From contig NW_005178456.1 in NCBI RefSeq assembly GCF_000341285.1, positions 62,001 to 126,000 of the forward strand: DNA of 64,000 bases, in the 5' to 3' direction. Position 1 is the first letter of the stretch; the number at the start of each line of letters is the position of its first letter. Origin of the DNA: Galdieria sulphuraria (lineage: Eukaryota; Rhodophyta; Bangiophyceae; Galdieriales; Galdieriaceae). Positions 44,244 through 45,227 of this stretch are shown here, one piece after another. A program made the translations under genes and the position numbers. The notes below the pieces were generated by a model, which worked only from the letters and a program-made list of their open reading frames with translations, ran no database searches and was not told the origin of the DNA.

Positions 44244-44756
44244 TGGGGACACAAACCGATATACACAAAAGTGTGTTTATTCAAAAACACAGAAACAAAA
44301 GAGATTCAACAAGGGATAGGAGAATACTATGAAGAGAAATTCAATCCCCCAAAATGTGAGCCGTTAGACAACTGTTGTCATCCAACTTCAAACGCTGTCG
44401 AAAGACAAGCAAGAACCGACACTAGAAAGTATTTGGAAAAAGAAATGATCGAGTATTTGAATAGTCATTTTGAAAGTTTCCAGAAAAAAAATGCAACCCA
44501 TTTGGCGCCTTTTCTTTGCGTCATTGAAAGGGCTTATTCTTCAAAAGAGTTTTTGTTGACGGGTATTTATTTCTTGACTTTTCAACAAATAGCACTTGCT
44601 GCGGAAGCAATACGGGGCCACATGTCTGCACACTCTTTGGCAACTGGACCTGCTACAGCAGAGCCTTTCATCTCACCCTTGGGATTCACGATTACACCCG
44701 CGTTATCTACATCAAATCAGTGTCAGACAATTCTATCACAAATTAGGCAAGTTTAA
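44244..44756 (+). other. Open plus-strand frame overlapping RPL23 antisense
   Basis: An uninterrupted frame of 178 codons whose first 110 codons lie in the only space between RPL23 and the UVR-ApaG gene. That part looks protein-like (GEYYEEKFNPPKCEPLDNCC; RKYLEKEMIEYLNSHFESFQ). From 44582 on it is merely antisense to RPL23 exon 3. No ATG is available before codon 75. Either a chance open frame or a small gene with an unseen first exon; a TTTGGCGC lies at 44501-44508. Confidence 0.3.
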
Positions 44757-45227
44757 CTTGAAAAATCAGTCCCGAAAGATGTATTATCTTCCAAGGTCAC
44801 AGTATTGACCAATCAAGAAATATCAAAGGTTTCATCACCAACTTTTGTATGTCATAACTAATGTCGACAACTTACCTTCAAAATACAAGATAACTCCATC
44901 CTTCCTTCTCCAGGGCCTTCTCTGACGAATCACCACAGCGGGTGTTACTTTTTTTCTCAACTCCGGCTTACCCTTCTTAACTGTTGCCAACACCATATCG
45001 CCCACAGAGGCTGCAGGAAGTCGGTTTAAACGTGATTTGACTCCCTTTACAGAAATTATGTAAAGGTTCTTGGCTCCTGTGTTGTCCGCACAGTTGATGA
45101 GAGCCCCGACAGGTAAGCCTACAGAAGTACGGAATTTGCTTCCTGTTGAACCTTTTCTACCTAAACTATTTTTCAACGATCAACTTTTATATATTCGAAT
45201 ACACACAAAATTACCTCTTTTGGACAT
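44582..45227 (-). CDS. RPL23: Cytosolic ribosomal protein uL14 (RPL23)
   Basis: Eukaryotic 60S subunit protein. Three exons, 45227-45215 (13 nt), 45160-44876, 44706-44582, give exactly 140 residues, the same as human RPL23. MSKRG from exon 1 joins to RKGSTGSKFRTSVGLPVGA, then INCADNTGAKNLYIISVKGV and VGDMVLATVKKGKPELRKKV. Exon 3 supplies DNAGVIVNPKGEMKGSAVAG and ends ADMWPRIASAASAIC. The first intron is 54 nt. The second is 169 nt, about three times the local norm, and carries a box C/D snoRNA. Confidence 0.96.
44760..44845 (-). ncRNA. Intronic box C/D snoRNA guiding 25S/28S rRNA methylation
   Basis: Within RPL23 intron 2, minus strand. Box C GTGATGA at 44838-44832 fits RUGAUGA perfectly; box D CTGA is at 44769-44766. 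Directly before box D, after one spacer base, stands CATCTTTCGGG (44781-44771), an 11-nt complement to the conserved eukaryotic large-subunit rRNA stretch CCCGAAAGATG. The base five positions from box D pairs with the G after CCC, which corresponds to the site I recall as yeast 25S Gm805 (snR39b). A weak A/U-rich terminal stem is possible (AAAAG with TTTTT). Intronic position in a ribosomal-protein gene is usual for such snoRNAs. Confidence 0.75.

What the first reader, a model, noticed from the sequence alone, without database searches (positions are those of the whole stretch)
44707..44875. Box C/D snoRNA inside RPL23 intron 2, targeting the CCCGAAAGATG site of large-subunit rRNA
The intron is 169 nt where nearly all others here are 40-65 nt. 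It holds a perfect box C, a box D 62 nt later, and an 11-nt guide ending one base before box D that complements a universally conserved eukaryotic rRNA stretch. By the box D plus five rule the target is the G in CCCG, equal to yeast 25S Gm805 as I recall it. Snorna genes of red algae are hardly annotated, and the host being a ribosomal-protein gene repeats the yeast and animal habit.
Basis: partly seen in the sequence, partly recalled or inferred. Interest (0 to 1): 0.78.

Follow-up and report, generated by a model that had tools for sequence, protein, structure and literature searches.

The report
Red-algal intron-encoded rRNA methylation guide
The second intron of a red alga's gene for ribosomal protein L23 carries a box C, a box D and an 11-base stretch complementary to a conserved ribosomal-RNA site, which together likely make a small guide RNA predicted to direct methylation of the same base that yeast methylates; it looks like an ordinary new member of a well-known class.

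Summary
RPL23/uL14 intron 2 (44875-44707, minus, 169 nt) contains a perfect box C GTGATGA (44838-44832), box D CTGA (44769-44766) 62 nt later, and the 11-nt guide CATCTTTCGGG (44781-44771) one base before box D. By the D+5 rule it points at yeast 25S G805, measured as methylated in yeast. In 264 kb of this genome it is the only perfect box C with an 11-nt rRNA guide at a CTGA, and it hits a yeast methylation site; 60 resampled sets gave none at such a site. The guide word occurs three times in the 12-Mb genome; the other two lie in coding exons. The genome encodes fibrillarin and has convincing box C/D RNAs for 4 of 7 other conserved sites tried, including a separate Am807 guide with the same 62-nt layout and a two-base shift in register. 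Against: no convincing terminal stem, no Rfam family at threshold, the alga's own 25S gene not found, no RNA evidence and no relatives' DNA. Best reading: a genuine, ordinary intron-encoded C/D snoRNA of snR39/snR39b/SNORD2 type in a Galdieria.

The parts
44582..45227 (-). Host gene RPL23 (uL14): exons 45227-45215, 45160-44876, 44706-44582; 140 aa
   Evidence: Exons joined and translated; homologues in many eukaryotes incl. red algae (typed query lacked one residue)
44707..44875 (-). Intron 2, 169 nt, GTAAGT...TAG, host of the snoRNA
   Evidence: homologous proteins continuous across the junction
44832..44838 (-). Box C, GTGATGA (perfect RTGATGA)
44771..44781 (-). Guide CATCTTTCGGG, complementary to CCCGAAAGATG of LSU rRNA (yeast 25S 802-812); D+5 target = G805
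   Evidence: yeast rRNA typed from recall and checked at 21 of 21 positions against PMC5199042
44766..44769 (-). Box D, CTGA
44760..44845 (-). Likely extent of the mature RNA (boxes plus a few nt each side); ends are a guess
   Evidence: Inference from box positions; no RNA data

Best explanation
RPL23 intron 2 holds a box C, a box D and an 11-nt guide, and is likely spliced out and trimmed to a roughly 75-85-nt box C/D snoRNA predicted to direct fibrillarin to 2'-O-methylate the large-subunit rRNA G equivalent to yeast 25S G805. Shown by the sequence: intron, boxes, guide and register, and a fibrillarin gene elsewhere in the genome. Inferred from established knowledge of intronic C/D snoRNAs: transcription with the host pre-mRNA, debranching and exonuclease trimming, binding of the core proteins (Snu13, Nop56, Nop58, fibrillarin) to boxes C and D, pairing of the guide with pre-rRNA, and methylation of the base opposite the fifth nucleotide upstream of box D. 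No second guide at a D' box was found with yeast rRNA.
For: Perfect box C, box D and 11-nt guide in the D+5 register of a measured yeast methylation site. Only such place in 264 kb; 0 of 60 resampled sets had one at a yeast site. Guide word 3 times in 12.05 Mb, the other two in coding exons and without CTGA at the right place. Three of the four best-scoring families in a permissive Rfam scan of the intron (TtnuCD19, snR39, SNORD2) carry the same CAUCUUUCGGG-N-CUGA. The same genome has convincing C/D RNAs for 4 of 7 other conserved sites tried, among them an Am807 guide with the same box C, the same 62-nt box distance, the guide at D, and a register shifted by two bases. Fibrillarin with a glycine-arginine-rich tail is encoded. 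P. falciparum PFS8, assigned to the same site, has the same guide core (PMC2656528).
Against: Flank pairing next to the boxes is no better than shuffles (473, 413 and 310 of 500 as good at 10, 15 and 25 nt). No Rfam family at its threshold; snR39, the best-fitting one by E-value, reaches 20.8 of 40 bits, and a 9-kb scan that contained the intron did not list it at E up to 5. An 11-nt complementarity somewhere in an intron is common by chance. The alga's own 25S gene was not found, so the target is inferred from yeast. No RNA data, no DNA of relatives. Metagenome protein P0002 (98% identical) runs through the exon 2-exon 3 junction, which may mean a spliced transcript or a relative without this intron.
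Confidence: 0.88

Rival explanations
1. Same class of RNA, other layout: the CTGA after the guide is box D', with a C'-like GTGATAG (44739-44733) and the true box D at 44726-44723 or 44720-44717, as in SNORD2 and PFS8 where this guide stands at D'.
For: SNORD2 consensus and PFS8 have this guide before an internal CTGA; C'-like and D-like words exist downstream.
Against: The RNA would end 10-16 nt before the 3' splice site, leaving little room for the branch point. The guide lies 50 nt or more from box C, whereas the D'-guides of L162, L163 and L164 begin within about 10 nt of it. The Am807 RNA of this genome has the D layout with the same spacing.
Confidence: 0.06
2. Chance: boxes and complement fell together in an unusually long intron and no RNA is made.
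For: No terminal stem, no fold signal (z -0.52; 63 of 200 shuffles fold as well), relaxed scans do produce false hits in coding exons (L148).
Against: 0 of 60 resampled 264-kb sets reach the combination at a yeast site; same guide, register and box D as in known families; matching Am807 partner in the genome.
Confidence: 0.05
3. A decayed snoRNA gene: once a working G805 guide, no longer processed, the methylation lost or taken over by another guide.
For: Weak flanking stem.
Against: Box C, box D and all 11 guide positions are intact; the exact guide with CTGA occurs nowhere else in the assembly, though a shorter or varied guide would escape that search.
Confidence: 0.01

Closest known systems
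snR39 (Rfam RF01197)
   Same: Box C GUGAUGA, guide CAUCUUUCGGG-N-CUGA before the terminal box D, only two base pairs in the consensus stem. Yeast snR39 lies in an RPL7A intron (recalled).
   Different: 20.8 bits against a threshold of 40. The literature assigns yeast snR39 to Am807 (PMC2806949 and PMC5199042), although the printed consensus is in the G805 register.
SNORD2 / snR39b / PFS8 (guides of the Gm805 site)
   Same: Same predicted target and same guide core.
   Different: In SNORD2 and PFS8 the guide stands at D', here at D; SNORD2 scores 16.9 bits against 37. The yeast snR39b sequence itself was not compared.
TtnuCD19 (Rfam RF02295, Tetrahymena)
   Same: CAUCUUUCGGGACUGA at the 3' end, identical over 16 nt.
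   Different: 22.2 bits against a threshold of 70; different rest of the sequence.
Am807-type guides: L165 in this genome, GtNM-R13 in the Guillardia nucleomorph
   Same: L165: same box C, same 62-nt box distance, guide at D, overlapping guide. GtNM-R13 guides the A1511/SNORD51 site from box D (PMC6461891).
   Different: Register two bases away (A807). Between box C and guide, L165 is no more similar than shuffles (204 of 500).

Membership tests
Box C/D snoRNA (class) | Box C RUGAUGA and box D CUGA at a normal distance | tested here: met
   Perfect both, 62 nt apart
Box C/D snoRNA (class) | Guide of about 10 nt or more just upstream of D or D', with the D+5 base at a methylation site | tested here: met
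   11 nt, one base before D, yeast G805; with yeast rRNA, not the alga's own
Box C/D snoRNA (class) | Terminal stem bringing C and D together (common, not universal) | tested here: not met
   No better than shuffles. The Am28 and Am649 RNAs of this genome also fail this test, Gm2815 passes at all three lengths, Am807 at two of three
Box C/D snoRNA (class) | Methyltransferase fibrillarin in the organism | tested here: met
   C34, E 5e-105; open frame with RGG-rich start. Nop56, Nop58 and Snu13 were not searched
Box C/D snoRNA (class) | A stable RNA of 70-90 nt bound by the core proteins | not testable with these tools
   No RNA data
Box C/D snoRNA (class) | 2'-O-methylation of the target | not testable with these tools
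   Needs RiboMeth-seq; alga's 25S gene not found
snR39 (RF01197) | Score at or above the curated threshold (40 bits) | tested here: not met
   20.8 bits. Works like it; not filed as a member
SNORD2 (RF01299) | Score at or above the curated threshold (37 bits), guide at D' | tested here: not met
   16.9 bits, guide before what is read as the terminal D. Same target; not filed as a member

The most novel reading that the evidence does not exclude
Galdieria carries a matched pair of D-box guides of identical geometry, two bases out of register: G805 inside a ribosomal-protein intron and A807 downstream of a second ribosomal-protein gene. This would be the snR39b/snR39 pair in a red alga; it would mean that the G805 guide has moved between the D and D' positions among eukaryote lineages, and that the alga ties this methylation to the splicing of a ribosomal-protein pre-mRNA.
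Probability: 0.3. Interest if true: 0.4.

Novelty: new member of a known kind. Interest (0 to 1): 0.25.

Why it matters
It adds a specific, testable methylation guide to a lineage with little snoRNA annotation. It suggests that Rfam thresholds miss snoRNAs in this alga: threshold scans of the window and of loci L162 and L163 found none. And a simple approach (conserved guide plus CTGA over the whole genome, then a look for box C) turned up four more candidates in seven tries. Intron-rich Galdieria could help to test whether intron hosting of snoRNAs is ancestral or recurrent in eukaryotes.

Tried and rejected
Rfam at threshold over the window: nothing. tRNA scan: nothing. LSU gene of the alga: not found with an LSU word and up to one mismatch; the Rfam LSU search did not complete. 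Second guide at a D' box: no exact complement of 8 nt or more to yeast rRNA before the D'-like words tried; words within 20 nt of the start of box C were not tested. Whole-intron fold: not significant. Homology of the RPL23 and Am807 RNAs beyond boxes and guide: not above shuffles. A first gene finder gave too many long introns and was replaced. A protein search with the ORF 1895-3670 gave one weak hit and no taxon; the ORF 13650-15149 did. L166, a one-mismatch hit to the Am807 pattern, has no box C in reach. L148, an 11-nt guide to G2288 with a mismatched box C, lies in a coding exon. PMC6492006 was opened for the target word, which is not in the part held.

Full report
What is there. On the minus strand, exons 45227-45215, 45160-44876 and 44706-44582 join to a 140-aa ribosomal protein uL14 (L23). 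The 120 best of 3210 matches listed are uL14 proteins of many eukaryotes, red algae among them (83% to Porphyra umbilicalis; the query lacked one residue by mistake). Intron 1 is 54 nt; intron 2 is 169 nt, GTAAGT...TAG, 34% GC, with stops in frame if retained. G. sulphuraria has about two introns per gene, averaging 50 bp (PMC5880011, passages read).

The motif. Intron 2 holds GTGATGA (44838-44832), then 62 nt, then CTGA (44769-44766). The 11 nt CATCTTTCGGG (44781-44771) end one base before CTGA. They are the exact complement of CCCGAAAGATG, which occurs once in yeast 25S, with its G at position 805. The yeast rRNAs were typed from recall; the base agrees with the published list at 21 of 21 positions checked (14 LSU, 7 SSU; against PMC5199042). 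The fifth guide-side nucleotide upstream of box D pairs with that G. CCCGAAAGATG is also the start of a 28S primer used for chrysophytes (PMC11549551, passage). In yeast Gm805 is assigned to snR39b and is 90%, 93% and 98% modified by three measurements and >95% by a fourth (PMC5199042, section 13).

Is it more than chance? The complementarity alone is not: 54 of 300 resampled introns have an 11-nt or longer antisense match to yeast rRNA somewhere. The geometry is. In the window plus twenty 10-kb stretches (264 kb, both strands), a perfect box C starting 40-130 nt before a CTGA that carries an 11-nt exact guide at offset 0 or 1 occurs once, here, and it is aimed at one of 55 yeast methylation sites. 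In 60 first-order resampled sets this occurred at such a site never; without the site condition the resampled mean was 0.15 (maximum 2) against 1 observed. Allowing one mismatch in box C, one further hit at a yeast site appeared (L148); it lies in a coding exon and shows what false hits look like. In the whole genome of 12.05 Mb the 11-mer occurs 3 times: here, in an exon where TCGA follows, and antisense in an aconitase-like exon (the gene reading is recalled from the sequence, not searched).

Relatives. No Rfam family reaches its threshold in the window. A permissive scan of the 181-base stretch, chosen after the fact, lists 11 matches; by bits TtnuCD19 (22.2, E 1.1), snR39 (20.8, E 0.13) and SNORD2 (16.9, E 0.78) are first, second and fourth, and their consensus lines all carry CAUCUUUCGGG-N-CUGA. 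A scan of 9 kb that held the same intron did not list them at E up to 5. In snR39 and TtnuCD19 the guide stands at the terminal box D, as read here; in SNORD2 and in P. falciparum PFS8 it stands at D' (PMC2656528, section 6). PFS8 is assigned to the site of yeast Gm805, with snR39b named as the yeast and human counterpart (passages).

The genome's other snoRNAs. To learn how C/D RNAs look in this genome, seven conserved sites were searched genome-wide as the 12-nt complement plus N plus CTGA, one mismatch allowed. Four gave convincing RNAs. Gm2815: L162, box C, D' guide, 7-bp terminal stem, upstream of an FtsH-like gene. Am28: L163, directly after the stop of a Pus10-like gene. Am649: L164, D' box read as ATGA, inside a GTAAGT...TTTCAG stretch of 173 nt in a region between genes. 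Am807: L165, paired flanks, about 345 nt after the stop of a mitochondrial uL11-like gene on the same strand. Three gave none: Cm2959, Am2946 and Am1133. A second, one-mismatch Am807 hit (L166) has no box C in reach. The gene names in this paragraph rest on recognising the translations, not on searches. A threshold Rfam scan of L162 and L163 found nothing, so Rfam silence carries little weight here; L164 and L165 were not scanned.

The Am807 RNA is the most telling comparison. Its box C is the same GTGATGA, its box distance the same 62 nt, its guide is also at D, and its guide CACCATCTTTCG overlaps the RPL23 guide with the box shifted by exactly two bases, as the D+5 rule demands for A807 instead of G805. 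The stretch between box C and guide is not more alike than shuffles (204 of 500 as good), so common descent of the two is not shown.

Weak points. Flank pairing next to boxes C and D is no better than shuffles (473, 413 and 310 of 500 as good at 10, 15 and 25 nt). In the same test the Am28 and Am649 RNAs also fail, Gm2815 passes at all three lengths, and Am807 at 15 and 25 nt but not at 10. A longer pairing of the two ends of the intron, which would enclose the RNA, is only suggestive (84 of 1000 as good). The alga's 25S gene was not found. No DNA of relatives and no RNA data were available. P0002, a 98% identical metagenome protein, reads through the exon 2-exon 3 junction; this could mean a spliced transcript or a relative without the intron.

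Mechanism. By established knowledge of intronic C/D snoRNAs, the lariat would be debranched and trimmed up to the box C/D protein core, and the guide would hold pre-25S rRNA so that fibrillarin methylates the G. A fibrillarin with a glycine-arginine-rich tail is encoded (C34, E 5e-105). These steps are inferred.

What is known in print. Searches for snoRNA or small nucleolar RNA with red alga, Galdieria, Cyanidioschyzon and Rhodophyta (open-licence PubMed Central only, listings read) showed no paper whose listing is about Galdieria snoRNAs. C. merolae is in a plant snoRNA survey (PMC5122169, passages and section 8); its family table was not seen. Eleven C/D RNAs are described in the Guillardia nucleomorph, which derives from a red alga; the table lists the A1511/SNORD51 site but no G two bases before it (PMC6461891, passages and section 16). 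The present RNA is therefore filed as a new member of a known kind.

Noticed in passing
L165 minus strand, 1501-1573 (G000 C35:96851-96867 minus for the guide and D): Strong box C/D snoRNA candidate for the Am807 site: GTGATGA, 62 nt, CACCATCTTTCG-A-CTGA, paired flanks; lies about 345 nt after the stop of a mitochondrial uL11-like gene.
   Followed up: partly
L162 minus strand, 1469-1530 (G000 C63:59988-60004 minus for the guide): Strong box C/D snoRNA candidate for the Gm2815 (snR38) site with a 7-bp terminal stem, upstream of an FtsH-like gene; missed by Rfam at threshold.
   Followed up: partly
L163 minus strand, 1469-1535 (G000 C43:44709-44725 minus for the guide): Box C/D snoRNA candidate for the 18S Am28 (U27/snR74) site directly after the stop codon of a Pus10-like pseudouridine synthase gene, so perhaps in its 3' UTR; a possible longer outer stem was seen by eye only.
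   Followed up: partly
L164 plus strand, 1487-1559, inside the GT...AG stretch 1445-1617 (G000 C10:8976-8992 for the guide): U18-like candidate for the Am649 site in an intron-like stretch of 173 nt between a PEX6-like and a COX6B-like gene; possibly a non-coding host gene.
   Followed up: partly
Rfam RF01197 (snR39) consensus as printed: By the D+5 rule the printed consensus guide is in the G805 register, while papers assign yeast snR39 to Am807 and snR39b to Gm805. Not resolved.
   Followed up: no
G000 assembly: Two LSU rRNA words (CCCGAAAGATG as rRNA gene, ACTCTCTTAAGGTAGCCAAA) find no LSU rRNA gene; the rDNA is probably missing from the assembly or withheld.
   Followed up: partly
P0002 (metagenome protein, contig of 1441 bases): 98% identical to the window's RPL23, continuous across intron 2 but with a different start where intron 1 would be; either a partly spliced transcript or a relative that lacks intron 2.
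   Followed up: no
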